A DNA stretch of 64,000 nucleotides from Thoreauomyces humboldtii (lineage: Eukaryota > Chytridiomycota > Chytridiomycetes > Spizellomycetales > Powellomycetaceae): the NCBI GenBank assembly GCA_027596035.1, contig JADGJA010000024.1, positions 1 through 64,000 of the forward strand, in the 5' to 3' direction. Numbering within the stretch: the first letter of the stretch is position 1; each line of letters opens with the position of its first letter. Position numbers and translations under genes: made by a program. Positions 5,501 through 63,500 of this stretch are shown in pieces. The notes beneath the pieces were generated by a model. That model searched no databases. It saw only the letters and a program-made list of their open reading frames with translations, and was not told where the DNA came from.

Positions 5501-8500
5501 ATGTTTGGCAAGGCAGGCGGAATGGTATCCGCAAGAGGTGTGTACTGCATGTCGGGCTTCATCGCTCATTGTTCCCCCCTTTGGCGCAATCACTGACCTC
5601 CAGCCTTCCTCTGAGGAGTAGCTCGACCTCCACTTCCAGGAGCGGACGACATATACGCACTCAAGGACGAGAATCTGGTTCTCAAGAGGAAGATGAACGA
5701 CCAGGACGAGAAGAGCAAGAGGTAGCAACCACCCGGCAGTTCAGGAGAACCCCGCCCCCCGCACCTGTCTGAAATGGTCAACCTTTCCTCGAAGGCTCGT
5801 CACGAAGGTCCAGCGTCTGACGGAAGATCTGAAGAGAGCAAAAGTGCCAGTCAGCGAGGAGTCGGCGTTCACTCCAACACCCGGCCGGGGTGCGTTCTGC
5901 ACGTCATCACACCGTGCACTCCTTGACGACCACGTCCACCCTCTGACGCCGTTTTCTACAGCGGTCATCAGTCGACGTGAAGCTGCCGAGGTGGACGACA
6001 TGGTCGAAGACTTGAGAGGACAGCTCCGTATGCTCGCAAAAGACAATTCCCACCTGAAGAACAAGGTACGGCTGACGAATCTCAAAGGGCAGCTCCGGAA
6101 TTTGCTCGACATTGACTGCGATTCTTGACAGATGAACTTCTTCAAATCTCTGCACGAAGCGGAAACGCGAAAGGGAGCCCGCTACGACCACATCCCACCG
6201 CGAATCAATAGCGTGGGTCCCCCTACAACCTCGAGCTAAGAGAGCAGAATCATAACCTGTAAACTTGCGAATGTCAATTCAGGGTGTCAAAAAGCTGCAG
6301 CCTTCGCTAGTCATCCGACGGTGAGACTTGATGCCACTGTTGGACGAATCTCTTTTCGGTGACTGATGGCTTGTTGAGAACAGGCGTGCGGCCGCGCAGG
6401 CAGCTGATGACGGCAATACCGGGTAAGAACAGTCATACACGTCCCGTCGTTTTCCATGCATCTTAACGCTAACATTGTACTCGGACCAATCAGTAGAGCA
6501 AATGAGGAAAATCTTGCTACCAGCGAGGATGTGGCCAGACTGTATGTTTCAATCGATCATGTCAGCGGCAGCCATGTCTGACATCTAACGCTCTCGTTTC
6601 TCAGCGAGGAACTCGTTACCATGCTCCGAGGAAAGCTCGTCGACGCAGAGCGACAATCCGAGACAACGACAGCAGAGAATCAACGCTTGACAGAGCTCCT
6701 CGAAAGGTGCGTCGAGGGGACTCTGCATGCCCTAGTACAGACAGAGAAGTTAGCATTGCCATTGCTCATCTTGGCCTCAGTCGACAGCAGCAAAGCGACA
6801 TCGAGCGTCTGACCCACCAACGTGCCAACGCTGACCTGCAGAAGCGTTTGCAGGAAGCACTGGGAAAAGGCGCGGTGCTCGAGGAAACCCATCGGGCTCT
6901 CGGGGATGCTCATGCGGAGGCGTTGAAGGCGGTCGAGACTCTTACGGAAGAGCTCAAAGAGGAGCGAAGACGTCGCATCGAAGCCGAGGCAAGACTCGGC
7001 GCCGCTGGAGATACGACAAAGCGGATCGAGGAGGTAGCCCAACGAGAAAAGAGGATACGTGGCGATGTCACGGTCCTGACTGGTTTTTTATTTTTGGCCA
7101 GCTTGCAACCATCATCGCTGACTTGCGTGCCGAGAAGAAACTACTGGAAGACGAGCAGGCTCGTCTCTTGGCAGCGCAATTCGGGACCGGACGCGAGGAG
7201 GAATGGGAAAGGGAGCGGGCTTCCTTCCTTGCTCGGATAAAAGAGCTAGAAGGTCGAGCTGGTGATTCGTTAAAAGAGGCAACAGATCTGCACGCTACGA
7301 TCGCTGAACTTCGTGGTATGAAAGACCGGTTACACAGCACTGCTCAACAGCATATGCTGAACGCCTTCTAGGAAAACTTTCCGCGGCCCAGAAAGCAAAG
7401 CAAGAAGCGGAAGCCTCACTCTACAATGTCCAGCACATGCTCGACGAGCTGCAAAGCGCATGTGCGTTCCTGAACGATCCAGGACCGATCGACTGGGTCA
7501 TGGTACGAGATGCCGTCGCGCTTTGGAAGTCTCGCGGGGCCGACATGCCCAGTCGGGTACAGGATCTTGGCGAGGTAACTCTTCGATGTTGAAGATGTTC
7601 GCTATACGCGTTCCGATGCTCATCCTACACTCAGGAAAAACGCTTGCTGCAAGAGCTCTGGCTGCAGTACACTCGATGCATCGAGGATCTCGAGCGGACT
7701 CGTAAGCTGTTGGAACTCCAGGAACGAATCAATAAAGACTACAAACTGGAGCTTGCTCAGCTGAACGGTCGTTTGGAAAGCATCAAGAATGACTATGGTG
7801 ACTTCACAGAAAATGCGATGACTCGCTCCTTTTCGAGCTCTCACTGAGTGAGCTGCTTATAGAGATGCGGATAGAGGAGCATGCTCGTCTGCTAGATATT
7901 CGTGGGAATCGGATAGCGTTCTTAGAAGCACAGTTGAAGAGTCTCGCTTACGGTGTCGTCAAAGGTGGACATCACTGATCTCACTGTTCATGCGACACAG
8001 CTTGGACTAAAACTATCCATTTTCTTTCAGTACCCGAAGCAACAAAAGAATCGGACGATGATGTAGAGCTCGAAAAAGGTAGGCAGTCATCTCTCTTTTA
8101 AGTCTCTGGAAGCACTCTCGCTGACCCTCGTGTAGGGCAGAACCTCTTGACAATAGCCATGAACGGAGCCCTTATTACACCGGAAGGGAGCGAGCTGCTT
8201 GGTGGCTCGAAGCGCCTTCGAGAAGCGCTCGCCACCTTTGTGTACTTTGATTTCTTTGACTACGAGACCGCTGTTGGTCCAGTGGTTCCTGGGCTAGCCC
8301 CAAGATATGGATTCGCTGCAAAGTATGTTCACGATTTGCACTTTCACGCCTTCTTGTCCAGCTCTTCTCTTAACACGGGACCAAAAAAGGTATCGAGTCT
8401 TCATCGACGACTTTTGCCTTATGTACTTGCAGAGTCAACCGGTTATCGTGTATCTATGCACGGCGGACGGTTTGGACTTCACAGAGGTCGCCAAGTGGTA

Positions 8501-10113
8501 AATGCTGTTCAGAAGCCGTGCCGTAGATTTGACTGTAAAACTGACCCCATCCTTTCCTCAGCACTATCCGCTTCCGCAACCTCGTATCTGCAACACGAGC
8601 AGAAAGCACTCAATACTACGCAGACCTTGTCAGTATGCATGATCATGTGAGTCGCGCTTCGTCAAGTCATCCGAGGGCCAGCGAATCTGACCCTCAAGGT
8701 AGAAAACGGTCATTGGGAGGCTCGATTATACCATCGCCGTACGTCTTCCCATGTCACAAGCAGTGCGCGCCTTCAAGGAACGTACCGTAGCCCTCAATCT
8801 CCTCACTGTCGGCGAGGAGAGCGTGGATACTAGGTGAGTTGCTCGTACTTACACTTGACGCTCGCTCATAGCAAACTTACATTTGATTTTCTTCAAATCT
8901 TTTTGCACATCAAGCAATCGTTTTGGCACTCGAGGAGGCGTGAACGAGCTGGTCGTTGCTGTGCATCGATGTACGTCTTTGGACCTGACTGGCAGGGACC
9001 CCTCCCACGGAGTTCCGGCTGTTTACGTGGCGTTCCAACTACCGGGACACGATCATGCCGTCACTAGCACAGTACGAGGATCAACGGATCCTGAATTCTC
9101 CTACCTTCGGTCCTTCCGAGTCCACACTACTCCGGAGATAAAAAAGGCTTGGAGTTCAAAAACGGTAGCTTTGGCGTCTTCCCGCATTTCGATAGCTACT
9201 CCCGTTCGCTGAATTTCTGCTGCTTACTGCAGCTCATATTGCACGTTCTGGATGACACGGAATCCGATCATCAATACGGAACCGCGGAGATCCCACTAGC
9301 AGCGCTGGCCGCTGGAGAGGCGATCGAAGGCTCGTACGATATTCAGAACTCTGCTGGGACGGTCACCGGTTCCCTCCACTTGAGCTTGAGCTGGGAGCGA
9401 CCGCTATCGAAGGATGGCATATCGACGGTAAGACATTTGAGATTACCCAGCTTGGAACAGGGTGACCTTGCGACTTAACCCCTCGTTTCCCACTTCACCA
9501 GGTTATCCGCCGGGTCCACGGTTCCGCCAACGATATCGCATCCCGGCAACGACCTCCCGCTGCACCGTCCTCACGAAATCCCTCGCCACCCCCATCAGCA
9601 CCGGCCCCGACCTTACAACTCCACCCCACCCAGCCGTCAGCTTCCGGCACACGAAGTCCAGGTCAAACAACGCAACGAGCCGGTACCATCGTCGTTCCGA
9701 AACCGAAGCAACCCGAGATGCCAAGAGTCGCATCGGGGAGCGGGCCGTCTTCGGTCTGGACGGACGCGAGCGACAAGGCGTCCGAGACGGCCAACGACAC
9801 CATCGCGTCCGAGCTCAAGCAGGCGGGTCTTCGGGTTTCCCGATCGTTTCACGACTTTCTTTCGAAGACGGCGGAACAGGACGATCCGACGAGTAGGGGG
9901 ATCGGCGGATCTCGTCGTGATTCTTCTGCGTCGGCAGAAGCAGAGGATGAAGAGGAGGAGGGAGAGGAGGAGAAGGAGGGGACCTCTGAACCGGCTTCCG
10001 AGCCCTTGGACTTCGAGGAAGAGGAGAACTCTGAACATGCTGATCGGTTCCCGACCGAGTCGGAAAACAGCGCCGATCATGAAGGTTCAAGTGGACATGA
10101 ACGTCAACAGTAG
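5501..10113 (+). CDS. RPGRIP1L: RPGRIP1L-like ciliary transition-zone protein
   Basis: 22 exons, 1058 residues: 5501..5537, 5640..5721, 5795..5889, 5962..6065, 6132..6212, 6283..6320, 6384..6422, 6494..6541, 6605..6706, 6781..7033, 7102..7315, 7372..7574, 7635..7797, 7863..7964, 8031..8078, 8136..8322, 8390..8497, 8562..8646, 8703..8833, 8915..9164, 9233..9427, 9502..10113. An N-terminal motif (ENLVLKRKMNDQDEK, then KRLVTKVQRL) and long coiled coils run to about residue 530. Two C2 domains follow: the first contains FVYFDFFDYETAVGPVV and GLAPRYGF, the second spans about 707-855. This order matches RPGRIP1L, which scaffolds the transition zone at the base of cilia. The tail is Pro-rich, then strongly acidic. 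The third, C-terminal RPGR-interacting C2-like domain of animal proteins is not visible. Short introns and consistent phases support the model; the first two exons are the least certain. Confidence 0.88.
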
Positions 10114-21908: not shown

Positions 21909-23929
21909 GAACCACACTCGCCTCTCAACTCGTATGGTTGCTTATGATCATATGATCCAGATTGAAGAATTAGCCAGCTTCCTCGCTATTTCTTGTGAAG
22001 TACATGCTATCCTGAAGTACATTTGATACAAATACCAAAGTAAGTGATGGGTGTAGCGCTACCCCGGAGGTATTCTGCCACTACCCCTTCCCCTGCCTCC
22101 CAGCATTTCTCGCTGGAGGTGCCGGGTGTCCCCTCCGGAACGCTTCCGGTCTTCCATTCCCCTGTAGATGGGACTGGACGATGGTTCTCGGGTCTCGGTT
22201 GAAGTAGCGGACTCGTCGGCCTTGCAGGAAGTCGCTGGGGCCGAAGGTTTGTTGTACAGATGTCAGGTGGTCGCACTCCAACAAACCGTGAACGCCATCC
22301 AACTGTCCTGCCCTCCATGGTCGTGGCCTGGGTCGCTTCGGGACAACTTTCTTTCTGACCTTGTGGTAGGCCATGACGTCTCCGACTTGCTCCCCGATGG
22401 GGCAGAATGGAGGATGTAAGGTACGCCAGGTATTAAGGGCACGCGCTATTAAGGGCATTACTGCCGTACCCGGCAACGGGTATTACTGGTACCACTGGTA
22501 TTACTGCCGCTTCGGTGCACACGAAAGCGCCTCGGATGCCTCGATCACCGTGTGCACCCGAAAGCGCTCGAGATTTGACTCTCCTCAGTCGTGGAAGGGG
22601 TGTCCTCAGATCGGGTGTCTTCATCTTCGCCTTTGTCGTCGTTGTCGTTGCTGGACGTATCGTCTGAGCTGGATTCCACGGCAAAAAGTACGGCGGCATC
22701 CTGGGCCAGCGAGCTTCCTGAATGAAGAACGGGGGGTCCCCAGCTGGATCATTGCGTTCAGTTGGACTTGCTGAGGGTCCGAGTCGTTCATCACGGATGT
22801 CGGCGGCGACCGCTGGAAGGATGGTTGGAGTCGGCGGAGGGTAGGAGACGGCGGGGAAAGGAGGAAGGCAGGGCGTGGCCGTATTGAGGCTAGATATACT
22901 CTACACCGGCAAGACAAATGACGTGAGAGTAGTGATGCAAAGCCTGCAGGTCACTTCACCAGCAAGCAGATGTCTCGAGCAGATGCAGTGGGAGGACTAG
23001 ATTGCCTTCACCACAAAGTGGGAATGTCCGGGGAATGGGGAAAGCAGGAGGAATGGGGAGAGGTGAAAAAGGAAGGATCCGGACGACCTAAAATTAACTT
23101 GCATCTGGCGGCCTTGGACCTGGTTGTGTAGCGATCACATAGGGGTTGCCATCGCTGGCGCGGGGCCCAGGCCGACCTCAAAAACCCCAACATTTAGCGA
23201 TGCAGCCCACCGGCATACAGTCGCTGGACGTCCCCTCACGTGCATTTTTTTTCAGCCTGTGTCCCAGTAAAAAAAGGGCTGTTGACGGACTTGATGGTTC
23301 AACGGATTGTACCAGCCTGATTGAACGTCCTTTTCGCAAGAGGCACGTTCTGCTCTAAACAAAGGCGAGATCGAACGACGGGGTCTGCACTTTGGAACTC
23401 CAGGGGAGTAGTCCGAAGCGAACAGATCAAGCGTTTGCTGCGTGCGTTCCGGCGTCGGCACCGCGGGTGAAAAAAGACGACCAGCATCCTCATTGTGTCT
23501 CGGGAAAGTGGTGTATCGTTTTTTCACCGGAGTTTGCGGCGGACTTTCAAGGATGTCTTGTTCACAGTTCCCGTTTTGCGAAGGCCGTGTAAAGTAAGCA
23601 TCGCTTGTCCGGGCAAAGTTGCGACCCGCGGCGACGGGAGTGCACGGCGGAGTCCAACAAGGTTCATCGCCGTCAATGTCCCTGTTCCCCCTTGTCGTCA
23701 GAAATCCATTGCGGGCTACCCCCGTTTCGCAAAGAAAACGGTAGACATGAGTCATTCTCGCTGCCGCTCGACAGGCCGGGACTTGATGGAGAGGTATGGT
23801 AAGAGGGCAAGGAACGAGGCTCCGTGGCAGCCTCATCAGATGTCTCCGGTGACGGAGAAACAGTTGCATGGACATTTTGGGCCTACGCGGAACTATTTCC
23901 TCGCAATTTTTAACTATAGAAATAAAGAA
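21909..23929. other. Gene-poor accessory stretch with degenerate open frames
   Basis: Two kilobases with no gene I can support. Open frames at 22081-22476 and 22433-22917 (minus) are Arg/Pro-rich, and 23252-23947 (minus) is 231 codons long, but none resembles a known protein and the minus-strand ones shift frame repeatedly. They may be remains of retroelement gag-like sequence. A short composite repeat at 22425-22520 is listed separately. Confidence 0.4.
22425..22520. repeat. Composite short repeat, left edge of accessory island
   Basis: Contains TATTAAGGGCACGCGCTATT followed by several GGTATTACTG-like units and ATTACTGCCGCTTCGGT. The same pieces recur near 27.30-27.40 kb in a rearranged order and orientation, and are not seen elsewhere in the window. 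Confidence 0.6.
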
Positions 23930-35507: not shown

Positions 35508-37270
35508 CTACTGAACTGTGATACGGATGCAGTCGTCCTGGGCTCCCCTCTGGGCGACGGGCATGACCAGAGGCTGATGGGTGAAGGCTCCGCTCATGGT
35601 GCACAGACGGTAGACTCCCGCGCCCGAGGTCGTGAAGGACGCGGAGGGCACCTCGACGCTGAGGTCGCCGGAACCGTCGGCGACGTCGTTGAGTCCCTTG
35701 AAGAACTGGAAGATCTGTGGGTCGGGTGCGCTGGGGGTGGCCGAGGAGGAGGCGGCCACCCGTTGGACGGTCACGTGGGTGTGACCCTGGATGACGCCCG
35801 CCGCGTTGAGGGTTTGGGGCGAGGTGTAGTAGTTCGTGGCGGCGGCCGAGAAGTGGCCGGTCTCGAGGTTGGAGAGGGCGATGCGGACGGTGAAGTTCTG
35901 GGAGATGGGAAGCACCGCTCCGTCGGCGGGGAGGATGATCAGCGAGGAGGGCATCTGGGAGAAGGCTGGGATGGCGCCTTGGATGGTCTCGCCGCAGGAT
36001 CCGGTCTTGACCTGCAGCCCCGTGAGAGGCGCGAAGCCGGTCAGGCCGCAGAACGCATCGCCGCCGATGGCGATGGCGGACGCGTTGTTGACGTCGAGGG
36101 CCGCGTTTAGGCTGCCCGTGATGACGGTAGAGCCGGTGTTCGTGTTCGAGGCGGTCGTGGTGGCTTCTGCAGTGGCGGCAGAGGATGTCGTGGTGGCTAC
36201 GGACTCGATGGACACCACTGTGGAAGAGGTCGCGGCAGAAGACGTGGAGGAAGAGGAAGAGATCACGACGGAGGAGGTTGCCACAGACTCGACGCTCACG
36301 ACACTGGCGGTCGCGGTAGCGACAGCCGTGGTACCGGCGTTGTTCGATTGCTTCGTGTGGTATCCGGAAGCCTTGGTCTTGTAGTGCTTCTTCTTGGTCT
36401 GGGTCTCGGAGGCAACGACAGCGGTCGATGTTTCGACAGACTGAACACTCACGACAGCGGCGGCAAGGGTAGTGGTTTTGGTGTCAGCCATCATGGTGTG
36501 AGTTTCGCTCATCACGACGGCGGCAGGTGTCGTCTCGATCATCATCGAGTGGGATGCAACCGCAGCGGCCGGAGTGGTTTCGGCCATCATGGTGTGAGTT
36601 GCGCTCATCACTACGGCGGCAGGAGTGGTCTCGATCATCATGGTGTGGGATACCACAACCGCAGCAGCAGGAGTGGTCTCGGCCATCATCGTGTGGGTCT
36701 CCTTCATCACGACGGCAGCGGGTGTCGTCTCGGCCATCATGGTGTGCTTGGACTTGTAGTACTTTTTCTTGGTCTTGGCGGGTTCGGCCATCATTGTGTG
36801 GGTCTCCTTCATCACGACGGCAGCGGGTGTCGTTTCGGCCATCATTGTGTGGGTCTCCTTCATCACGACGGCGGCAGGGGTCGTTTCTGCCATCATGGTG
36901 TGGGTGGCAACGACGACGGCCGCGGGTTGCTGCTGCGTGTAGTGATATCCGCTGTCCGGTTTCTTCTTGTGGTAGGGCTCGTACGTGGGCGCTGCGTCAG
37001 GCGTGTATACGGCGGCAGGCGCGACCGCCGGCGTGTTGTACACTTTGACGGGAGCTGCGGTGGTGTAAGAGGTGTCATATGCTGGTTGCGTATACGCCGG
37101 TGCGACGTAAGCTGAAGCCTTCTTATGGCACTTTGCTGCAAACAAGTAAGCGACTGACGTGAGACCCCGATCCAATGTCAACCAGATGGACAGCCTTCTT
37201 CCATACCTGGACGAGCTGAGACGGCGCAGGATGCCGTGAGCGCGAGGGCGAGGATGTGAGTGAGATGCAT
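35508..37270 (-). CDS. Secreted repeat protein with conserved C-terminal fungal domain
   Basis: Two exons on the minus strand, 37270..37207 and 37135..35508; 563 residues. A clear signal peptide (MHLTHILALALTASCAVSA) is split by the intron. A Tyr/Pro/Ala-rich linker with YHKKKPDSGYHY follows. Residues ~99-245 hold nine copies of a 16-17 residue unit around THTMMAETTPAAVVM; one unit is interrupted by KTKKKYYKS. A Ser/Thr-rich spacer then leads to a C-terminal domain of about 190 residues that starts near GSLNAALDVNNASAIA, includes GDAFCGLTGFAPLTGLQV and IQGHTHVTVQRV, and ends DDCIRITVQ. This tail resembles a widespread uncharacterised fungal secreted domain. The protein is probably O-glycosylated and linked to the wall or extracellular matrix. 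Repeat number is likely variable. Confidence 0.82.
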
Positions 37271-52544: not shown

Positions 52545-54437
52545 TCAGCCATTGTCACCTCGACCCACGATGAAGCTGAGCCTTCGATCAAAGAGGCTGA
52601 ACTGGGGAGGACGGGGGACCTGGGGAGAAGTTCCCGGGGCAGCTGCAGGAGCTGCGGCGGTCGTGGTCATGGCCATCTGCTGACGATGGTGAGGTAGGAC
52701 AGAGTTGTGTCTGGCGCGGGCCAAGAGCCTCGGTTTGAGAGGAAGGGCGAGTCCCGGTGGTGCCGGAGGGGAGAGAAGGAGGAGGGGCTTGGGAAATGCG
52801 TCTGCTTGCTGCAGGAGAGTGGCAGATGGGTAATGGTGGGATTGATACAGCGAAACGTGGTCGTTTTGATGAGAGGCGGGAACATCGGGAGTGGGCTTGG
52901 CGATCTGTCGACGATGCGGTGGGAGCGGGGCACCATATGCACTTGTGTTCGGTACCGCGTTGATGTCAAAATCCAGGCCGGTGGAGAATGGACTGTACCA
53001 TTGCTGCGTGCGTGCGGGATCGGCGCGAATTGCGCCCGGGTTGCGGGCTTGAAGCTGGTGAGCAGGCTGATGGGACATCGTCGCAACACCGTGGGGAAGG
53101 TAATAATGCTGGAAGCGTCGCGACTCTTCTAGGACTTCCTGATAGCTGGGCGGTGGGGAGGGAGTAGGATCCTGGCGGGACGCTTGAATAGGAGCTACGA
53201 CAGGGAGAGGAGGGGTAGGCAAGATGAGGGGCTCTTTGTGATGCTGGCGGAGTTCCCGCCAATCGGGGGATTTGTGACCGAGTTGCGGTGATTTCGAGCG
53301 TTGCAAAGTGCTGTGACTGGAAGAGGTGAGACTGGGTTCAGACAAGGATATGTCTGTGGATCGTGTCCGCGAATGCGCTCGAGACATTCGCTGAGGCACG
53401 ATAGGCACGCTGCTGGTTGCTGCGTCAAGTAGTGGCGGACATGCAGCGTGTTTGGTTGGAATGGGCAGAGATGGGGGAATGGAGTTGGTGGTGACCTTGG
53501 CCGCTTCGAAAGGCAAACAAAGTTTCGGTTGCGCATTGCTCGCTTCAAGCACGCGTATTGCAGGAGCGAATGGGAGAGTCGATGCCGCAATGGAAGAGGT
53601 AAATGTTTTGCTGTGACGTTTGCCCACTGATGATTTGCCGTGCGTGACGGAAGAGGTAATTTCCGTAGCAGGTAAAGGTATGGGGGGCAAATCGACGACT
53701 GAAGGCGGTGCAGGAGAAGGGGGTGGCGAGGCATTTCCGACTGACGCGATCCTTCCATGGCGGTTCTTGCGTCGTGACGACGAAGGCGTGGGAGCGAGGA
53801 AAGGCGAGCTTCCGGAGTGCTTCTCGGCGGACTTTGCGGTATGGTTGCGACCGCCCTGAAGGACAGCGCTCGCGCCCTCTTCCTCCCTTTCCTGCTCGAG
53901 CATGCACGGCCCGTGCTCGTTCGTGCGACTTTTCCCTCTTCCTCCAAGAAGCGGGTCTCTGTCCCCTTCGTGCAAGTTGGGAATGTTGGCGTGCTCGGGT
54001 GGAGACGTACAGTTCCCATCCCAAGCGGTTCCTAGGAGCCCTCTTCGGGATCCGGGATGACGCAGAGTGCGCAAGAAATCGGATACGCTCTGGATCGACT
54101 TCAGAAGCTTGTCAGTGTCACAGTTGAATTGCGGGCAGACAAGAGAAAACGAAAGCACGCGGCGCAAGCTGTGACTCACGGGAAGGTATCTGCTGGTCAT
54201 GACCAGGACGCCGAAAGCAGCTACGAAGAGCAGGGCCGTGGCGCACCACACCCGCTCGAGCAGCAAAGCGTGCGGCCGCAGCTCATTGGCCTGATGGCCC
54301 GTTTGCCCTGGCATAGCAGGCATTGCAGCCAGGCTAGAGTCTACAGCGAGAGTCGAGTTGGCACAGCAGAACGCAACCACGAGGAACTGTGCAAGGAGCA
54401 CATGAAGCCCGGAGATGACGTTCGAAAAGGATGGCAT
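52545..54437 (-). CDS. Membrane-anchored low-complexity protein of unknown function
   Basis: One long open frame on the minus strand (630 codons). A strong donor GTGAGT at 54179 and a CTGAC...AAG acceptor at 54108 define a likely 72-base in-frame intron, so the protein is probably 606 residues. The N-terminus has a hydrophobic leader (VISGLHVLLAQFLVVAFCC) and a second hydrophobic segment around residues 65-82 (ATALLFVAAFGVLVM). The rest is hydrophilic and Ser/Pro-rich with a PPPSYQEVLEE motif, poly-Ala near the end, and no recognised domain. It may be a plasma-membrane or wall-associated protein with a cytosolic disordered tail. The long frame and codon regularity make it a probable gene. Confidence 0.6.
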   Translation of the reverse strand: MPSFSNVISGLHVLLAQFLVVAFCCANSTLAVDSSLAAMPAMPGQTGHQANELRPHALLLERVWCATALLFVAAFGVLVMTSRYLPVSHSLRRVLSFSLVCPQFNCDTDKLLKSIQSVSDFLRTLRHPGSRRGLLGTAWDGNCTSPPEHANIPNLHEGDRDPLLGGRGKSRTNEHGPCMLEQEREEEGASAVLQGGRNHTAKSAEKHSGSSPFLAPTPSSSRRKNRHGRIASVGNASPPPSPAPPSVVDLPPIPLPATEITSSVTHGKSSVGKRHSKTFTSSIAASTLPFAPAIRVLEASNAQPKLCLPFEAAKVTTNSIPPSLPIPTKHAACPPLLDAATSSVPIVPQRMSRAHSRTRSTDISLSEPSLTSSSHSTLQRSKSPQLGHKSPDWRELRQHHKEPLILPTPPLPVVAPIQASRQDPTPSPPPSYQEVLEESRRFQHYYLPHGVATMSHQPAHQLQARNPGAIRADPARTQQWYSPFSTGLDFDINAVPNTSAYGAPLPPHRRQIAKPTPDVPASHQNDHVSLYQSHHYPSATLLQQADAFPKPLLLLSPPAPPGLALPLKPRLLARARHNSVLPHHRQQMAMTTTAAAPAAAPGTSPQVPRPPQFSLFDRRLSFIVGRGDNG

Positions 54438-55189
54438 CGCCCTAGGTGACGGGTGGGTGGGTGGAGGTGGCTGGGATTGGGTTGTTGAGGTGGTGGCAAG
54501 AAGAGAAAGGGATGGGCTAATGGCGAAGCGTGGTTGGGACGGTGAATAAAGATTCTCCTTCTTCCTCTCTATGTGTATACGAAATAGGAGCCAGGAACAG
54601 TCAGAGAGAGCGAGGGTGGGGTGACCTTGCAGAGGAAGAGGAGGTGGACGAGGTCTCTAAGGCAATCCTCCACAACCCATTCCCCGGGGGACCCTCTTGA
54701 GTTGGGAGTGAGGGGAGATGTGAGATGCGATGGGAGCGTGGGAACGAACGTACCGGTATTAGAAAAGGGCACACAACCAACCACAAGGGGGATCTCCGAC
54801 TGACTGCACTTGTTCCGAAAGGACAAAGGCTGCTGCTGCCCCCGGATGGGACGCGCGCGTTGCAGTCAAAAGCTCCAAAGCTCAAAAAGGGTCTCCCCTC
54901 GGCGACTCTCTCGGTGCAATTCCCCATCGCCATGCTGTATTTCAAAGCAGGAAAAAGAGTCGGAACCCCGACGACGTGACCCCAGCCCCTTGTTTCCCCT
55001 CGTCTCCACGGCAGGCGAACGCGTCCCAAACGCTGCTGAGTACTATCGAGTTCATGCGTCATGCAATGTTCGGCGGACGCGAGGGAGCGCAGTCCGCAGT
55101 TTTTAGGCCCGCAGGGGCTTTCATCTGATGAAGCGCATCGGTCATTTACAAATTTATCATGATGGTCATAGGAAGGATCTGTCCTAACA
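54438..55189. other. Intergenic, upstream of the membrane-protein gene
   Basis: 752 bases with only short frames. Borders the tandem repeat array that starts near 55.2 kb. Confidence 0.4.
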
Positions 55190-57420
55190 TCTAGTGTCGT
55201 ACATTTTGCCCGCCCTTGTTCGGATCGTCACATCATTCTGGTTCCGCGATCCTAGGTTCCTTTCTAGAGCTGTAAAAATGACTTTGAGAACAGTCCCTGC
55301 CGTGCAAGTGTCCAGGACACGCCTCGTTCCTTTAGCTTGCGCTCTCCGATGCAAAATTCCGCACAGAGTCCGTTTCCGTTCTTGATCCGGCTCGAATGCA
55401 TTGGGTTACTCCTTCCCATCGCTCTAGATCCCGCTCCTGGCATCAAAGCTCGTGCAGATTCCGTTTCCGCTGGGAAGAGTACCCGCCGTCCGTCCACGTA
55501 TTCAGAAATACCTCGTTCCACCTTTCCGTTTCTGTTCTTGACCCGTTCGATGCGTAGCTTCCCTTCCCATGTGGTCCTAATCCGTTTCTGTTCCCGCGCG
55601 GTCCGAAAAGAAACGGACCGTGCCATTGGATACTTCTCAATACTTTAGATCCCTCACCTGGCATCAAGGTGTATGCAGATTTTGTTTCCAGTTCACGTTC
55701 CGCAGGCGCGTCGAGTTCCTTCCATGGAGCTGTATAAATGTCCATGAGAAGAGTCCCTGCCGTCCAGTCTTCGACAACATGCCTCATCCGTCTAGATCCC
55801 ACTCGTCGCATTGAAACCTTGTGCAAGGTCCTATTCCGTTCTACGTACCGCGCGTTCGGAAAAGCGAAAGATCCCTGTCGTCCAATCTGCCGGATCCCTG
55901 CCGTTATATCCCGCTACGCGCATTGAAGTTCGTGTAAAATCTGTTTTCGGCTAATTCCCTGTGGTGTGCTAGATTCCTCTTTTCCCGGCTGTTAAAGTGT
56001 CTTGGAGAAGAGTCCTTGCCGTACACTTCTTCAGAACATGCCTCAATCCTTGGTACTGGTCCGCGCGTCAAAGGTTCGCCCAGCAGTATTTTCCGTTGTG
56101 GTTTCCGTCCGAAGCGCAAGGTTCCCTTTCCACATGGGAGAGAAGAGGTACTTCCGTTCCGAGGTGTTTATAGCTGTTCTTGTACCATCGATCCCGGTAA
56201 TCTATCAAATGTTCCTGGGCGGAACATATCGGTTTCAAGTCACGCTCGGGTCCGCTAGCGTCTTCGTCCCATGGAGCGACGCGCCTTCGTTCCCCATGCA
56301 ATGAAGCCCTGTCATACAGTTTCTTAGAACTCCATTTGATCGATACCCCCCGACACTCACATTTCGTCAAATGATAATTCATTTCTTTCTCTTTGCGCCG
56401 ATCCGGTGTCCATCCTTTGGTTGGGCACGTTGATGGAGCACGTTCCGTTCCGAGGTGTTTCCCGATTCATCGATCCCGATACTCTTTTAAATGTTCATGG
56501 GCGGAACATATCTGTTTCAAGTTACGCTCCGTCCGCTAGCGTCTTCGTCCCATGCAGCGACGCGCCCTCATTCTCGATGCAAAAAAGCCCTTTCATAGAG
56601 GATCTCAGAACTCCGTGGAATCGAGAAACCCCAACACTCACATGTCGTCAAACTATAATTCATTTCTGTTTCTTCGCGCCGATCGGTGTCAGTCCCGTGA
56701 TTGTCCAGGTTGATGGAGCGCGCTCGTATTCCCATTTCCGGTTCTTTGTTTTCTTCGGGTGCACTGCATTTCCTTCGCACGTATCGTTGTACAGCTCGAA
56801 TGTTCTTTGAGAGGGGTCACCGCCGGTCTGGCTTTTAAAGTTCCCTATCCTTCTCTCGATCGGTTCGCTGGATTTCCTTCAACATGTAACGACATCTGTT
56901 TGTCTCCATGTGGGGGTTCCCTGTCATGTGGTTTTTCAACAATCAGTTCGTGCCCTCAAGTTCCCGCCAGACGCTCACATTTCCGACATCGTGCGCCATT
57001 CGGGCGCTCTGAATTGATGTGCAAACGAGGTATCCAGCTCGAGAAAGTCAGTTTGACCGGTTCTGTGGCTCCGCTCGAGTGCGCTGCATTCCCTTTCGCA
57101 TGCAGCGTGGTGCCATGAACTGTCCACCTCGATTTTGTATTCCACTTCCGCTTCCATGTTTCCACGCTGCATCTCCGCCGAAGCTGCGGATCCGTACAGC
57201 AGCAAATTCCCTGCGATCAAGGTGTCAGAAAACAACTCAACACTCTAATACTCGCATCGACGTTCGTGTGCGGAACGTGTGGACATCTCCGTTCCAGGTT
57301 CCGCTCGGTTCCATTCCGTCTTTTTCTCATGTAGCACCGTGGTGTCCATCTCCATGCAAAAAGTCCCTGTCATAGTAGTTATCAGATTTGTGACCAATCT
57401 TTAGATACTCGACACTTACA
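55190..57420 (-). repeat. Degenerate tandem array of ~160-340 bp modules carrying splice sites
   Basis: Nine related modules, recognised by a CCCTGTCAT/CCCTGCCGT core on the plus strand at about 55297, 55490, 55757, 56010, 56308, 56590, 56925, 57210 and 57368. The pair at 56.21-56.40 and 56.49-56.68 kb is the most alike, 281 bases apart. On the minus strand the five right-hand modules each hold a short intron: 57419..57367, 57255..57211, 56978..56921, 56641..56590, 56360..56309 (45-58 bases). Donors are GTGAGTGT, GTAAGTGT, GTGAGCGT or GCGAGTAT, and acceptors GACAG, CGCAG or GAAAG followed by GG. The first three of these introns belong to the predicted gene ending at 56845; the leftmost modules look decayed. 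Confidence 0.65.
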
Positions 57421-59021
57421 TTTCGTATGTCGTAACGCATTTCCAATATCTCGTCTCGCGGTCATTGATCTTCCGCAAACTGCGCTGTACGGTTGAGGTA
57501 TCCAATTTGATGTCAGTTCGTATCCATCTGTAACGCTCGGGTGCGCTGAACGCATAGCCGCGCCTAAGTTAATCTCATGCTGGCAGCGGTTGGAAGCACT
57601 ATCTGGAAAGTGTACCGACGACGAGGTGCAGGAGGTGAGGTCGAGAGGCTGCCAGAGAGAACGATGGTATTTCGTGTTAGTACGCCTGTGCTAAGCCGAT
57701 AACCCCTACCTGGATTTGCTCGCGGACGGAAGTTCGCTCGACGAGTGACCTGATTGTCCTAGAGGCGAACGTGCTCCTCGTCGTCGGTACTGGGTTTTCC
57801 AATATGCTCAAGAGAGGAGCTCACCTTAAGAAGCATCGACGTGGATCAGCGATCGATGGTCTGTTGAGACAGCATCCAATCAGACAGCTCACCTCGAGCT
57901 CATCGACAGGATGCGCTTTCGATGATCTGTCGAGGCAACGACGACAAGACAAGTTAGCACGGTGGCACTGGGTTTCGAGGATGCTGTGTGAGTCCCGAGG
58001 GAAGCTCACCTCGAGCTCGTCGACAAGCTACGATAGGGAAGCGCTTTCGATGATCTGTTGAGGCAGCGACGACGAGACAAGTCAGCACGATGGAACTGGA
58101 TCCCGAGGGAAGCTCACCTCAAGCTCGTCGACAAGCTACAACAGGGAAGCGCTTTCGATGATCTGTTGAGGCAGCGACGACAAGATAAGTCAGCACGGTG
58201 AAAACCGGATCTTGCGGATGCTGAGTGAGTTCCAAAGGAAGCTCACCTCAAGATTGTCGACAGGCTACGATAGGGAAGCGCTTTCGATGATTTGTTGAAG
58301 CAACGACGACGAGACAAGTCAGCACGATGGCACTGGATCTTGAGGATGCTGAGTGAGTCCCAAGGGAAGCTCAGCTCAAGGTTGTCGACAGGCTACGAAG
58401 GGAAGCACTTTCGATGATCTGCCGAGGCAACGACGACGGTACTCGTCAGCATGGGAGGGCAATCGGTCTTGTGGGTGCAGAGTGAGGGGAGCTTACCTGA
58501 AAGCGTCGACAACGAATGAAGCGTAGCACCGAGTGGAGATACTCTGTCGAGACAAAGGCGGCGAAATCCGTCCGCATTTGGGGTTATGAGGATGATGAGT
58601 GAGGGGGAGTTCACCTGGAACGCGCGTCGACAACGAACAAGCGAAGCACTGGGACAGACCTCGTCAGCATGGGATGGCGACGAGTCCTTGGATCAAGGAA
58701 CGATGACGAGGACTTGTTGACGACGACTTGTGCTGTATGGAAAGCCTTGAAGGTGGTTGAAGATGCGCACCGTTGGTGAAGGCTTGATGAAATCGAGGAC
58801 GATGACTGCGGGACAGAAACAGCGATGGTGAAGGCTCGATATCATTGAAACCGCAGTGAAGGAAATTCTTGGGATGAGGCACCGGTAGCGATGACTTGCT
58901 CGATATGATCGAAGACGATGAACGAAGGGCAGCAGAGGAAGTGGTTGATGAAACGGCGGTAGTGCAGGCTATCCGATCGAGAACGACGACCGAAAAAGCG
59001 GAAGCGGGGCCTGACCAAGGG
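56845..59021 (-). CDS. Predicted multi-exon gene built from tandemly duplicated mini-exons, unknown protein
   Basis: Minus-strand exons: 59021..58883, 58805..58771, 58648..58615, 58543..58497, 58392..58247, 58162..58118, 58054..58010, 57926..57825, 57758..57710, 57648..57420, 57366..57256, 57210..56979, 56920..56845 (TAG). Joined, they give 430 open codons with every intron phase agreeing. The 5' end is not resolved and the first two exons are tentative. Introns are 45-122 bases; intron 57709..57649 has a perfect TACTAAC branch site and intron 57255..57211 is GC-AG. Three units repeat a 15-residue block (SSKALPYRSLSTSLR and variants), two of them as exact 45-base exons. The protein is Arg/Ser-rich early and more mixed later (HEINLGAAMRSAHPSV, EAEVEYKIEVDSSW). 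No known family, signal peptide or membrane helix is recognised. It could also be a noncoding RNA, but the long spliced frame argues for protein. Confidence 0.45.
57820..58670 (-). repeat. Tandem array of ~128 bp exon-plus-intron units
   Basis: Seven to eight copies in a row. The motif GCGCTTTCGATGATCTG (plus strand) recurs at 57913, 58041, 58149, 58278 and 58405, spaced 128, 108, 129 and 127 bases; more diverged copies sit near 57830, 58521 and 58640. On the minus strand each unit reads branch-like CTGAC, a pyrimidine stretch, CAACAG, a 45-base block, then GTGAGC: a full exon with both splice sites. The 108-base unit lacks 21 bases of intron. Confidence 0.8.
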
Positions 59022-60589
59022 CTACGGCGATGGTTTGCAGTCGAAGGAGAAAGGTTTGGAAGGTATGCGAGGGCTCTGTGATCTTGAGGAAGGTAGTAGG
59101 TGGCCGTTGCCAGTGCGGCGGTGATGAGCACTGGAATGCAGGGAATGCGGTTGCCGTGAAGAGGAAACGGACGCAAGGTGCGTTGGGATGAGGAAAAACA
59201 AGCCCGGGGGGACCGGGAAGGGGCCCTGCTATTTATGGCGGAAGGGAGGTTGGCAGCAGCAGCGAAAGACGGGTGGGGAGGGCGAGCGACAGGGGTCCCC
59301 AGACCCTGTGAAAGGCAGTGATCCGCAGCAAGGGCGCTTGGTTGCGGGCTGAAGAAGGGAAGCGTCACGCGGTCGGCGTGCGTGTGGTGAATGGCATTCA
59401 TGAACGGAAGACACCCGAGAGAAGAGGAGGGAGGCTATCAAAAGGAACCTATAGAGAGAGAGAACTGCTGCGCGCGCGCCATCAAGCGTGTATGCCTGCA
59501 TATAGAGTTTTTGGGCGGCAAGACCCCTTTTCGCCAGGGTGCGTCTAGGGGTGCGTGCGACCCTTGCAGAGAGAGACGCGCGACACGCGTGAAGTAGTAC
59601 GCGTTCGAAAGCTGCTTTTTCCTTCCTTCGCTTCCGCAATCCATCGGATGAGCATCGGCGCGAACCAAGGTCTCCTTTCGACAGACCTCAGTTTCCCGAG
59701 TGCACCGTTCACAAGAAACACGAGTGGAGAGGGCAACGACCTTTTCTCTTTCTAATACTCACATCTTGTACGTCTTTCAAGAGGAGCGGTGACCATCCTG
59801 AGCAGAGCTGCCTACAAAAGCTCAAAAGAACAATCCTCTATCGTAGAAGGTAGTCCACACCATCCTGAACAGAGTTGTCAGCAACCTTGATACGATGGTT
59901 CCCTGTGCCGGACGTGAAAGGTCCCACGACGTTAGGGATTCTTTATACGAGGTATGTTAAGCGCTCGGGTGGGAAAAGTCAGGAGGCGCAAAGGCTGCAA
60001 GGCTATCCGTTGCTTGCAACATGACACTACATTGCCAGACGAGGTCGGGCTGGCAGCAGAAGGAAGTGAAACGGAGGGCGGTGCCGTGCTAGGTAGCCGG
60101 AAAGTGAGTTGGGTCGAATCGCCTGGCTTCTGTATTCTGTGAAAGCCCCGAGTGGAGACGACGGTTGGGCGAAGTGCGCAAAGTCTTTTTGCATCCATGC
60201 AATGCTGAGAACTCGGACAATACAAGCAAGCATCCGAGTGGTAATGACCATGGAAGAATGTAACTGTGAGGAGGTTGAAGCCAGACGATGGGGGGTTGCC
60301 ATGTTCGAGTCCGTCCGCCGGAGACCTTGCCGCTATAAACGAGGGACTCATCAGCGGACATGTGCGGCTCCGTGGCTGTGCAAGTTCATTGTTCCTTTCC
60401 AGCGCAAATGGCCGTCCGTTCGCGTGCATTCGCCATGACGGACAAGGAGGATTTCAGACAAGAGTAGCAGCACTTCCGAGGAGGCCCCAGACGCGGCATC
60501 AGGCAATCCGTGGTTACGTCCAGAAGGAGGCAGTATAGTGGTCCGTAGGAAGGAACTCGAAGCACCATTCCGGGGCGGTTCGGAAAGAA
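59022..60589. other. Intergenic between the mini-exon gene and COG2
   Basis: About 1.6 kb. A 245-codon minus-strand frame (59401-58664) enters from here but its lower part crosses predicted splice sites. Pro/Arg/Ser-rich frames near 59.93-60.43 kb match nothing known. The right end holds the COG2 promoter. Confidence 0.4.
59228..59237 (-). promoter_or_regulatory. TATA-like element upstream of the mini-exon gene
   Basis: The minus strand reads CATAAATAGC, a good TATA-box match, about 210 bases above the first tentative exon of the predicted gene. No ATG follows on the minus strand for several hundred bases, so the leader would be long or spliced. Confidence 0.3.
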
Positions 60590-63500
60590 ATGGCTAGCAG
60601 CGCGCTACAGCCCCTCAAGATCACTCCGAACAGCCAACCATCGTCCCAGGACCTCAACTCCCCTGCCCTTCGATCTGCTGGCTTTGCCAGCATCATACCC
60701 ATCTCGTTTGATCGAGCCTTGTTCTCCGGAGAATCCTTTTCCCCCCAGGAGTTCATCGCCGACCGTCGGCACATTGCGCTTGACCGGCTCAAGAGCGAAC
60801 TTCAGCAAGGGCTGCGCGACTTGAAGACGGAACTTGTAGAGCTCATTAACCTTGACTATGCCGACTTCATCAACCTCTCCACGCGGCTGGTGGGAGTCGA
60901 TCGGATGATCGGGGATCTTGCAAGACCTTTGGAGCAAATTCAGAATGTTGTCCAGGTGGGTTTCACGAACGTGCTCGGCAAGAGTTCAACGAGCGAGTCA
61001 ACAGAACCTTGGGGCTCGCAATGGCATGGATACTCTTTTTGAAAGGAGCACCCATCGCTCATCGCGGCTTTTGTGCTTCCTCCATCAGTCAGTTCGTGAT
61101 GCCTTGGCGGATGTAGTCACACAGCTTGAGGACGATCTTGAGAAGAGAGCAGTCATCCGAGAAAAGAAGGTCAGCGAGCGAACGACATCGCCAAACATTG
61201 CCAGGATTGGGATTGAAGCTTGTTGCACAGGTGTATATCCAGCTTTTCGTTAGCATCCACGATTCGATCGAGAAGCTGGACGCACTCCTTCATGAATCGA
61301 AAGCCGAGACGAAGTTCAACGAGCAAGGGGAAGAGTCGGTTCGGGGAGGAAAGCTGATAGAACGTGTAGCCAACGAGTACTCCCAACTACGGTATCTTAT
61401 CTCGCGTGCCAATGGTACGCCTTTCGTTAAGAAAATCGAAAAAGTATGTTGCGGATCCCTTCTACGCTGGTGCAATGACTCATGTCCTACAATTAGCGAA
61501 TCAACCGGATCAAAAGCACGCTTACGTCCAGTCTGTCAAGATCTTTGACTGCAGCCTATAAGGACGTTATGGCGGATAGCTCCAGCGCAGCCACCGACGC
61601 AGCGCTGTCTCAGATTCTGCGAACCTATGTCTCTGTAGATCGTGTGGATGACGCCGAGAAGATTTTCGAGCAATCGATAACTTCTCCCTTCCTAGAACAG
61701 GTGGTCACGCGGCAGAAAGTCGAGCCCCCGGGAAACTCTGCCGCACCGAGATCCGCGGAATCTCGAGCGCATAGTCCATTACAAAATATGTACGATGCAA
61801 TCGTTCGGTTCGTGCGAACAGATTGCGCAAAGGCCTTGGAGGTATCCGGCAAAGCGTTCCATGGCACCGAAGGAGACCTCCTAGTTCATGCCATCTGGGC
61901 ACCGGTTGCTGCCACCATCATCAAGGCGTGCCCGTTCATCTTCAATCCCGGGATACCTGAAGTTTTCCATGAGGTAAGAAGCGGTTAAGGGTTTCCCAGC
62001 TAGGACCCTCCTTACATTTGTTGCCTGTTCTACAGAATTACGCAATGACCATGGACTTCATGACAAAGCTTGAGACGCAATGCCGCTCAAAGGGCGGCTT
62101 AAACACCTTCCGATCACATTCAGCAACCGTAGACTTTCTCAAACGATGGCAGCTCCCGGTGTATTTTCAAATACGATTCCGCGAGATCGCGACCGATTTC
62201 GAAGAGACGGCAGTGTCAACTTACGATTACGAGAGGTCAATGACGACCAGCGAAGGTAGGCGTCAGCGCACGTCGCTCATCTATCTTCTTCACAACCTTG
62301 CTCATCTCGTATACGCAGGGCTCATTCTCCCACCCAGCAGTGCCCTGATCATCTGCATCAATCTTTGCTGGGACGATAGCGTCTACCTGCGTGGGCTAAC
62401 ACATCGATTCTGGAAGCTGACACTTCAACTGCTGGCGCGCTACATTGCTTGGGTGCGAGATGCCCTGCATCCGGATATCATTGTTGCTGGCGGCAATGCA
62501 CTTCCGGAACCAAGCCAGGTGCGTCGGGACTTTGTGCCGAGGTCCGAAGAAACTGAACCGCAAAAACTAACGGGCGCCATCGTGCGTTATCCTAGCCTGC
62601 TGCTGTTTCTTCGCAAAATGGCCCAAGCAGTCCCGAAAGACCTTTGCCTCCATTACCAGACACGGCTGGCGACGAGCGTGTCCTTCAAAAGTTCCTTTAC
62701 TTTCATCAGGACCTCACCAGTCTTGCAGATCAGGTTACTATCATCTTCAACGCAGAGATTCGGAGCAAACTACCTTCTGCCGTGCGGGACGCCTCCATAC
62801 TGCGAGGTAAGTCGTGTGCGCGTCACACATAAGAGCACTGTGATCACAGCGCTGATGCGGTCGTGGATCTCAGATTGCATACATGATGCTCTCAGCCCGC
62901 TCCAAACTTTCCTTCCTCCATTAGCAAATCGAGTGTGCAGCGTACTCGCCAAGCGCTGCGCAGATCGTCTCAAGAACGACGGCGTAAGCAGCATCCCTTC
63001 CCAATACCGCATGACCAACAAGGAGGTACGTAACGTTGCACCGCCCGTCGATTCCGCCACTTGCGCTAATAAAACCCTCGCAACCTCCCCACCCCAGCCA
63101 CCAACGAGACCTTCCTACTTTGTCCCTACCATCTTCGCCCCTCTCAGAGCCTTCCTGGAGGCGCACTCTCCGCCATCCAAGGACGCGCCGATGTCCAAGC
63201 TCCAACGCGAATGGACCGCGGTGGTTACGGGCGAGGTGGCTCAGACGTACGCGGTCGTGGCGACCGACGTCATGGCCGAAGTGAAGAGGTTCGAGGATTT
63301 CCGACTGAAGGCCAAGCAACGGAGGCCGGTGGGCGGTGCCAACGTGGGGACCGGGGGAGCTGGAGCGATGAGCGATCACGACAAGATACGTCTCCAGATG
63401 TTCCTGGACGTGAAACAGTTCGGGGAGGACGTCGAGGCGCTCGTCGGGCGGGACAGGGCGTCCTCGCTTTGCAAGGACGTGAGGGCGTTGGTCGAACCAT

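What the first reader, a model, noticed from the sequence alone, without database searches (positions are those of the whole stretch)
56845..59021. Undescribed gene made of tandemly duplicated mini-exons
Seen: on the minus strand, thirteen predicted exons join into 430 open codons with every splice phase consistent, including two exact 45-base exons in a row and a third, related block. Exons of 34-49 bases alternate with introns of 45-122 bases, one with a perfect TACTAAC branch. Inference: a fast-evolving gene that grew by duplicating exon-intron units, so that repeat-number changes always keep the frame because each unit adds 15 codons. Product, role and 5' end are unknown.
Basis: partly seen in the sequence, partly recalled or inferred. 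Interest (0 to 1): 0.82.

Follow-up and report, generated by a model that had tools for sequence, protein, structure and literature searches.

The report
Probably noncoding mini-exon array in chytrid
In a chytrid fungus, a stretch that looked like a fast-evolving protein gene built of tiny repeated exons is real as a series of repeated exon-plus-intron units, but its reading frame is no better than chance, so it is more likely a spliced RNA gene that does not code for protein.

Summary
The anatomy is real; the coding reading is not supported. The genome is very probably Thoreauomyces humboldtii, a chytrid. On the minus strand of 57.6-58.65 kb, exon-intron units (exons 34-49 nt, introns 61-84 nt) are tandemly duplicated. 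A second set of duplicated exon-intron units follows at 56.2-57.5 kb; a TATA-like box lies upstream at 59237. A paralog on contigs C517/C687 has the same layout. The '430 open codons' arise by chance: 172 of 200 random sequences reach 430 with the same freedom of splicing. The open frame has the worst codon score of three, 5 of 16 internal exons are multiples of three, copies differ by frame-breaking indels, the paralog's corresponding frame is stopped in four of four window units u3-u6, and no protein relative was found at E <= 1. Best reading: a spliced noncoding RNA gene that grew by duplicating exon-intron units; a decaying array is the main rival. The paralog also carries a ~80-nt stem-loop candidate shared with three further loci, without Rfam match in the two scanned; I did not find it in the window. 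No transcript data were available.

The parts
59230..59237 (-). TATA-like box CATAAATA, probable core promoter
   Evidence: one of only two YATAAATA words on either strand of the 64 kb; paralog has TATAAATAG upstream of its array
58615..59205 (-). probable first exon, C- and T-rich leader with 2 ATGs in 59200-58601; contains weak tandem repeats; 5' end inferred from the TATA-like box; an intron ending at 58649 would leave a 34-nt exon 58615-58648
   Evidence: (D16)
58544..58614 (-). intron w0, 71 nt, no CTRAY
   Evidence: GTGAAC...CAG
58497..58543 (-). mini-exon u1, 47 nt
58419..58496 (-). intron w1, 78 nt, branch CTGAC
58375..58418 (-). mini-exon u2, 44 nt (1-nt indel against u3)
58292..58374 (-). 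former intron w2, 83 nt, both splice sites lost (CT...AA)
   Evidence: alignment A1
58247..58291 (-). mini-exon u3, 45 nt
58163..58246 (-). intron w3, 84 nt
58118..58162 (-). mini-exon u4, 45 nt
58055..58117 (-). intron w4, 63 nt (about 20 nt missing against its neighbours)
58010..58054 (-). mini-exon u5, 45 nt
57927..58009 (-). intron w5, 83 nt, branch CTAAC
57893..57926 (-). mini-exon u6, 34 nt (11 nt missing against u3-u5)
57861..57892 (-). shrunken intron remnant, 32 nt, probably not spliced
57825..57860 (-). mini-exon u7, 36 nt
57759..57824 (-). intron w7, 66 nt, no CTRAY
57710..57758 (-). mini-exon u8, 49 nt
57649..57709 (-). intron w8, 61 nt, branch GTACTAAC
57367..57419 (-). second array, intron d1 (53 nt)
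56921..56978 (-). second array, intron d2 (58 nt)
56590..56641 (-). second array, intron d3 (52 nt, ends AAG, no CTRAY)
56309..56360 (-). second array, intron d4 (52 nt, no CTRAY)
56200..57520 (-). second set of tandem exon-intron units (donor spacing 441, 337, 281 nt), purine-rich, with no similarity to the mini-exon units in the self-comparison
   Evidence: (D4, D5, D12, D13), alignment A2
55267..56063 (-). third set of degenerate repeats at the 3' side of the locus
   Evidence: D6, D9, D14

Best explanation
A spliced, probably RNA-polymerase-II-transcribed noncoding RNA gene of about 4 kb (TATA-like box at 59237, 3' end near 55.2 kb, both inferred). Its body grew at least twice by tandem duplication of exon-plus-intron units: the 108-129-nt mini-exon units and the 281-441-nt units. 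What selection keeps is that the RNA is spliced, not what the exons spell: splice signals mostly persist while exon sequence, length and frame drift. Shown: the units, their duplication, the strand bias of intron signatures, absence of a frame-specific coding signal, a paralog with the same plan. Inferred: transcription, splicing, noncoding role. Most likely role (weak inference): a host or carrier transcript, by analogy with the paralogous locus, where a conserved stem-loop candidate lies downstream of such exons.
For: Intron signatures only on the minus strand (6 against 0.37 expected). In the second array the nine splice-site columns agree pairwise at 78-89%, intron interiors at 43-72%, exons at 45-83% (4 copies, 6 pairs). 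Coding tests negative for the window; no protein relative at E <= 1. Between window and C517, in the 8 pairs u2-u5 with c2 and c3, introns (76-83%) and exons (76-86%) differ alike. Paralog C517/C687 has the same plan. Exon-intron duplication with 34-nt exons in C498. The paralog, C498 (two copies) and C187 share a ~80-nt core.
Against: No transcript data at all. One intron has lost both splice sites and one is 32 nt, as decay would do; 4 of 12 introns lack CTRAY. The splice-site test rests on 9 columns and 4 copies. The six signatures come from two copied families. Folding is not unusual: 20 of 21 200-nt windows have z between -0.97 and +0.68, one -2.17. The core of the sister loci was not found in the window. 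After homology-defined splicing one window frame is open for 205 codons (p 0.115 over the whole transcript, 0.001 if only the part from 58395 is taken). The spliced C517 transcript has a frame open for all 319 codons (p 0.017) and only 5 stops in three frames against 14.2 expected (p 0.004), though its three frames score alike (0.074-0.084 per codon). Where exons c1 and c4 or u1 and u6 are involved, exons are mostly less alike than introns, which fast protein change could also give.
Confidence: 0.52

Rival explanations
1. A decaying, non-functional tandem array: a former gene (of either kind) whose exon-intron units were copied by unequal crossing-over and are now drifting; splice sites persist only because the copies are young.
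For: Exons and introns differ alike in the 8 best comparable pairs; one intron lost both splice sites, one is 32 nt; unit spacing and indels are arbitrary; no unusual folding.
Against: Splice signals are better kept than the rest in the more diverged second array; two loci keep a TATA-like box, leader and array; related loci keep a common core.
Confidence: 0.28
2. One reading: a fast-evolving protein gene whose 45-nt exons add 15 codons each.
For: The 205-codon frame of the window and the 319-codon frame of C517 after homology-defined splicing; three 45-nt exons in a row; the next gene's leader is C-rich like this one; in C517 some exons are less alike than their introns.
Against: Chance level of the window's open frame; worst codon score of the three frames; 5 of 16 exons are multiples of three and substitutions show no clear codon-position pattern; no relative at E <= 1 in a database that holds proteins of this species; the paralog's frame is stopped in u3-u6.
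Confidence: 0.12
3. A long spliced 5' leader of noncoding mini-exons belonging to a short downstream coding exon not recognised here.
For: C-rich first exon with few ATGs (over the whole spliced transcript ATGs are not significantly rare, p 0.16); in C498 short ATG-started frames follow the last intron (read by eye).
Against: Unspliced stop-to-stop frames on the minus strand are at most 132 codons between 55.92 and 58.5 kb, with one of 156 at 55443-55913; the next gene downstream has its own leader and frame. Neither of these two frames was searched for relatives.
Confidence: 0.06
4. Introner-like intron copies that spread by insertion.
For: Four C517 introns are 92-97% alike while only one pair of their exons (c2, c3) is.
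Against: The intron word, up to 3 mismatches, was found 7 times in the genome, all in these two loci; in the window exons u2-u5 are copied together with introns.
Confidence: 0.02

Closest known systems
Tandem noncoding exon-intron host arrays such as the SNORD115/SNORD116 host transcript (recalled; a Prader-Willi review, PMC7917289, seen in a search listing only)
   Same: Tandem exon-intron units, noncoding exons
   Different: Here the small introns (52-84 nt) carry no recognisable snoRNA: no Rfam match at gathering score, two sub-threshold hits, no C box RTGATGA in 12 of 12 introns scanned
Micro-exon genes (MEG) of Schistosoma (PMC10526429, start of abstract seen in a listing)
   Same: Chains of very short exons
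   Different: MEGs encode secreted proteins from exons of 3-81 bp between introns of up to 5 kbp; here introns are 52-84 nt and exon lengths do not keep the frame
Fungal lncRNAs (review PMC12566771, three passages seen)
   Same: Putative noncoding polymerase-II transcript
   Different: The passages describe lncRNAs mostly without introns (Neurospora) or with fewer introns than coding genes; the words chytrid, exon duplication and tandem repeat have 0 occurrences in its text
Structured RNA motifs of fungi (PMC5640933, 12 passages seen)
   Same: Structured RNA in introns or leaders, like the core in C687, C498, C187
   Different: The text has 0 occurrences of chytrid, Spizellomyces, Chytridiomycota; the core has no Rfam match in C687 and C187
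Introner elements (recalled)
   Same: Nearly identical introns in one gene
   Different: Found in two loci only, and in the window copied with exons

Membership tests
Protein gene grown by frame-keeping mini-exons (MEG-like) | Open frame beyond chance | tested here: not met
   172 of 200 random sequences reach 430 codons under GT...YAG splicing; with introns fixed by homology p 0.115 for the whole window transcript, but 0.001 for a part chosen afterwards and 0.017 for C517
Protein gene grown by frame-keeping mini-exons (MEG-like) | Exon lengths multiples of three | tested here: not met
   5 of 16 (lengths listed by hand; two of them, 387 and 278, were one short: 388 and 279; the count stays 5)
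Protein gene grown by frame-keeping mini-exons (MEG-like) | Codon usage of the species in the open frame | tested here: not met
   -0.155 bits/codon, lowest of three frames; nine training frames +0.06 to +0.36, scored on themselves
Protein gene grown by frame-keeping mini-exons (MEG-like) | Translation | not testable with these tools
   no peptide or ribosome data
Spliced long noncoding RNA | Spliced transcript | not testable with these tools
   no RNA reads; indirect support only
Spliced long noncoding RNA | No conserved coding frame | tested here: met
   window; for C517 alone the stop counts leave some doubt
snoRNA host gene | snoRNA in the introns | tested here: not met
   no Rfam match at gathering score in the window; at E <= 5 two hits far below cut-off; no C box in 12 of 12 introns; H/ACA motifs were not scanned
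Core-bearing loci (C687, C498 twice, C187) | the ~80-nt core | tested here: not met
   model R2 over the whole window, filters off: best E 0.88, and none of the 19 matches at E <= 10 lies in 54.5-59.4 kb; the four loci it was built from score 91.9-101.5 bits
Introner elements | same intron in many genes | tested here: not met
   7 places found, 2 loci (a word search with up to 3 mismatches)

The most novel reading that the evidence does not exclude
Thoreauomyces carries a small, lineage-specific family of spliced noncoding RNA genes that grow by copying exon-intron units, each locus on its own; some of them carry a new structured RNA (about 80 nt, nested helices around the loop ACTTTGAATGCAGCGGTTGG) and the window's locus is a member that has lost it or let it drift beyond recognition.
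Probability: 0.3. Interest if true: 0.65.

Novelty: new variant of a known kind. Interest (0 to 1): 0.42.

Why it matters
Open frames over mini-exons are easily mistaken for fast-evolving proteins; this case shows how a control weakens that reading. If the transcript is real, it is a small, clean example of an RNA gene growing by exon-intron duplication in a fungus, with a paralog to compare, and the sister loci point to a possible structured RNA that the two Rfam scans did not recognise.

Tried and rejected
Protein-coding reading: tested by splicing search against random sequence, codon score, frame of the paralog, exon length and codon position, protein searches: not supported, with the reservations for C517 named above. 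snoRNA host: Rfam and C-box scan: nothing above threshold. Core of the sister loci in the window: an ungapped scan gave 23 of 36 at 54883 on the minus strand, which I took for a lead in a note; the model did not confirm it, so I dropped it. Intron hairpins: GTGAG can pair with CTCAC in 8-9 of 10 rows, without any compensatory change; ten introns fold with z between -1.45 and +0.51: left open. Introners. 5.8S rRNA as a species marker: no match in the assembly. One distant DNA search of the plasmid collection with the array: no match. Papers: none of the listings of seven searches showed work on this locus; four papers name the species, once each (listing only).
Full report
What is there. The window is contig C157 (1-64000 of 72050) of a 20.7-Mb genome. 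A COQ7 exon from a second contig of the same genome (C517, 14936 bases) matches a Thoreauomyces humboldtii protein at 99% over 56% of the query, listed on a contig of exactly that length; the next hits are Powellomyces, Geranomyces and Spizellomyces. This is a chytrid (Spizellomycetales). The locus lies between a COG2 gene on the plus strand (62018-63607 matches PF12022; its first exon is probably the frame at 60590, an inference) and an unnamed 630-residue frame on the minus strand at 52545-54437.

Anatomy. Reading the minus strand, a TATA-like box stands at 59237 (one of two YATAAATA words in 64 kb on both strands), followed by a C- and T-rich leader and then by units of one mini-exon and one intron. 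Exons measure 47, 44, 45, 45, 45, 34, 36 and 49 nt (a further 34-nt exon at 58615-58648 is possible); the gaps between them, from 58614 on, are 71, 78, 83, 84, 63, 83, 32, 66 and 61 nt. The unit recurs at start-to-start distances of 108-129 nt. The intron at 58292-58374 has CT instead of GT and AA instead of AG, so it is probably no longer removed; the one at 57861-57892 is only 32 nt. Farther on, a different, purine-rich unit with its own intron (GTRAGYGT...ATGAMAG) occurs four times at spacings of 441, 337 and 281 nt, and a third set of weak repeats ends near 55.27 kb. A self-comparison lists no match between the first and the second set.

Is it spliced? The signature GTRAGY + CTRAY + YAG is found 6 times on the minus strand of 55150-59240 and 0 times on the plus strand; shuffles give 0.37 on average and at most 4 in 500. 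Copies inflate this number: the six belong to two families. In the second array, whose copies are more diverged, the nine splice-site columns agree pairwise at 78-89%, intron interiors at 43-72% and exons at 45-83%; counted as invariant columns, donor 4 of 6, acceptor 2 of 3, interior 12 of 43, exon 53 of 174. That is what selection for splicing would do, on a small sample.

Is it coding? With GTR donors it is 493 (62 of 200 at 430 or more, 25 of 200 at 493 or more); with GTRWG donors 188, matched or beaten by 56 of 200. An earlier run on a longer segment gave 711 codons with loose introns, where 28 of 30 random sequences reach 430, and 244 with strict ones. When I fixed the introns by homology instead, one frame of the window is open for 205 codons; over the whole 1282-nt transcript this has p 0.115, over the 616 nt from 58395 alone p 0.001, a choice made after seeing the data, and three of its exons are near-copies. 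That frame has the lowest codon score of the three, -0.155 per codon, while nine training frames score +0.06 to +0.36 (a small set scored on itself). The spliced C517 transcript behaves differently: one frame is open throughout its 319 codons (p 0.017) and all frames together hold 5 stops against 14.2 expected (p 0.004), but its three frames have nearly the same codon score (0.074-0.084), so the lack of stops is not tied to one frame. Of 16 internal exons of the window, C517 and the second array, 5 are multiples of three (two hand-typed lengths were one base short, 388 and 279 being right, which leaves the count at 5; exons across lost introns were counted as fused). Exon copies differ by gaps of 1, 3, 4, 5, 9 and 11 nt among others, and substitutions show no clear codon-position pattern. 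Two protein searches, one with the open frame (134 candidates) and one with the 245-codon frame at 58664-59401 (4412 candidates), found nothing at E <= 1.

The paralog. C517 carries, behind its own TATAAATAG and a long leader, five introns of the same kind and exons of 171, 50, 50, 37 and 35 nt. C687 overlaps the first 467 bases of C517 at 97% and continues beyond its end, but lacks the promoter and first exons and has a dispersed repeat upstream instead; whether the two contigs are one locus, two alleles or two copies I could not tell. Between the two contigs one exon differs by a single base. In the frame that matches the paralog's open frame, mini-exons u3, u4, u5 and u6 of the window each have a stop, and u2 shifts the frame. 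In the 8 comparisons of u2-u5 with c2 and c3, introns are 76-83% and exons 76-86% alike; with c1, c4, u1 and u6 the exons are mostly less alike than the introns, and within C517 four introns are 92-97% alike while only exons c2 and c3 match well. The unit model R1, run over the window and four held loci (C517 not included), finds the six window units it was built from and, in C687, matches at E 5e-8, 0.0025, 0.19 and 0.41; none at E <= 5 in C498 or C187.

A shared core in sister loci. On C687, about 230 nt after the last exon I placed (L020:2876), lies a stretch of about 80 nt that recurs on C498 (twice) and C187, four places in all. Outside it the two C498 copies are alike (86% over about 950 nt), C687 and C187 share a further 33-nt match and a longer 74% one, and little else aligns. 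It can fold into nested helices around a conserved loop. In pairing tests of 5' and 3' flanks each 5' flank pairs best, or equally well, with its own 3' flank (-24.9 against -19.9 and -19.9; -26.4 against -25.8 and -21.9; -19.0 against -19.0 and -11.3), but the 3' flank of C687 pairs slightly better with the 5' flank of C498. A consensus fold of a longer stretch has 30 pairs, 2 of them with changes on both sides, and the surrounding introns fold with z +0.92, -1.15, -2.37 and -0.05. With three independent loci the structure is therefore a candidate, not a result. It has no Rfam match in C687 or C187 (C498 was not scanned). C498 also shows its own exon-intron duplication: two 34-nt exons (30 of 34 alike) 165 nt apart with 93 of 100 intron bases alike, and in its other copy a repeated exon of 111 and 62 nt (boundaries chosen by eye). 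The window's locus does not hold the core by the model.

Interpretation. The most economical account is a spliced noncoding RNA gene which grows by copying exon-intron units, with a paralog that does the same. A decaying array is the strongest rival. The coding reading keeps a small probability because of the 205-codon frame here and the few stops of C517.

Noticed in passing
L020:3109-3191, L030:4377-4458, L031:5103-5184, L032:4644-4725: Shared ~80-nt stem-loop candidate at four loci of this genome, no Rfam match in the two scanned; probably in a long intron of multi-exon transcripts.
   Followed up: partly
window 22113-22315; L020:2300-2525: Dispersed repeat of about 225 nt; one search lists 21 other places, some partial, 77-92% alike.
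   Followed up: no
L004:1-467 and L020:2603-3070: Two contigs overlap at 97% but one lacks about 2 kb of promoter and first exons; alleles, copies or an assembly break.
   Followed up: partly
window 36479-36905: Tandem repeat of 51/99 nt inside long frames on both strands (35508-37181 minus, 36348-37115 plus).
   Followed up: no
introns of L004:410-1090 and window 57927-58374: The donor GTGAG faces a conserved CTCAC, and the branch site TGCTGA a TCAGCA, so both splice signals could be hidden in hairpins; not stronger than shuffles.
   Followed up: partly
L030:647-936 and 8195-8582: Further tandem and dispersed repeats around the C498 loci; whether they are coding was not tested.
   Followed up: no
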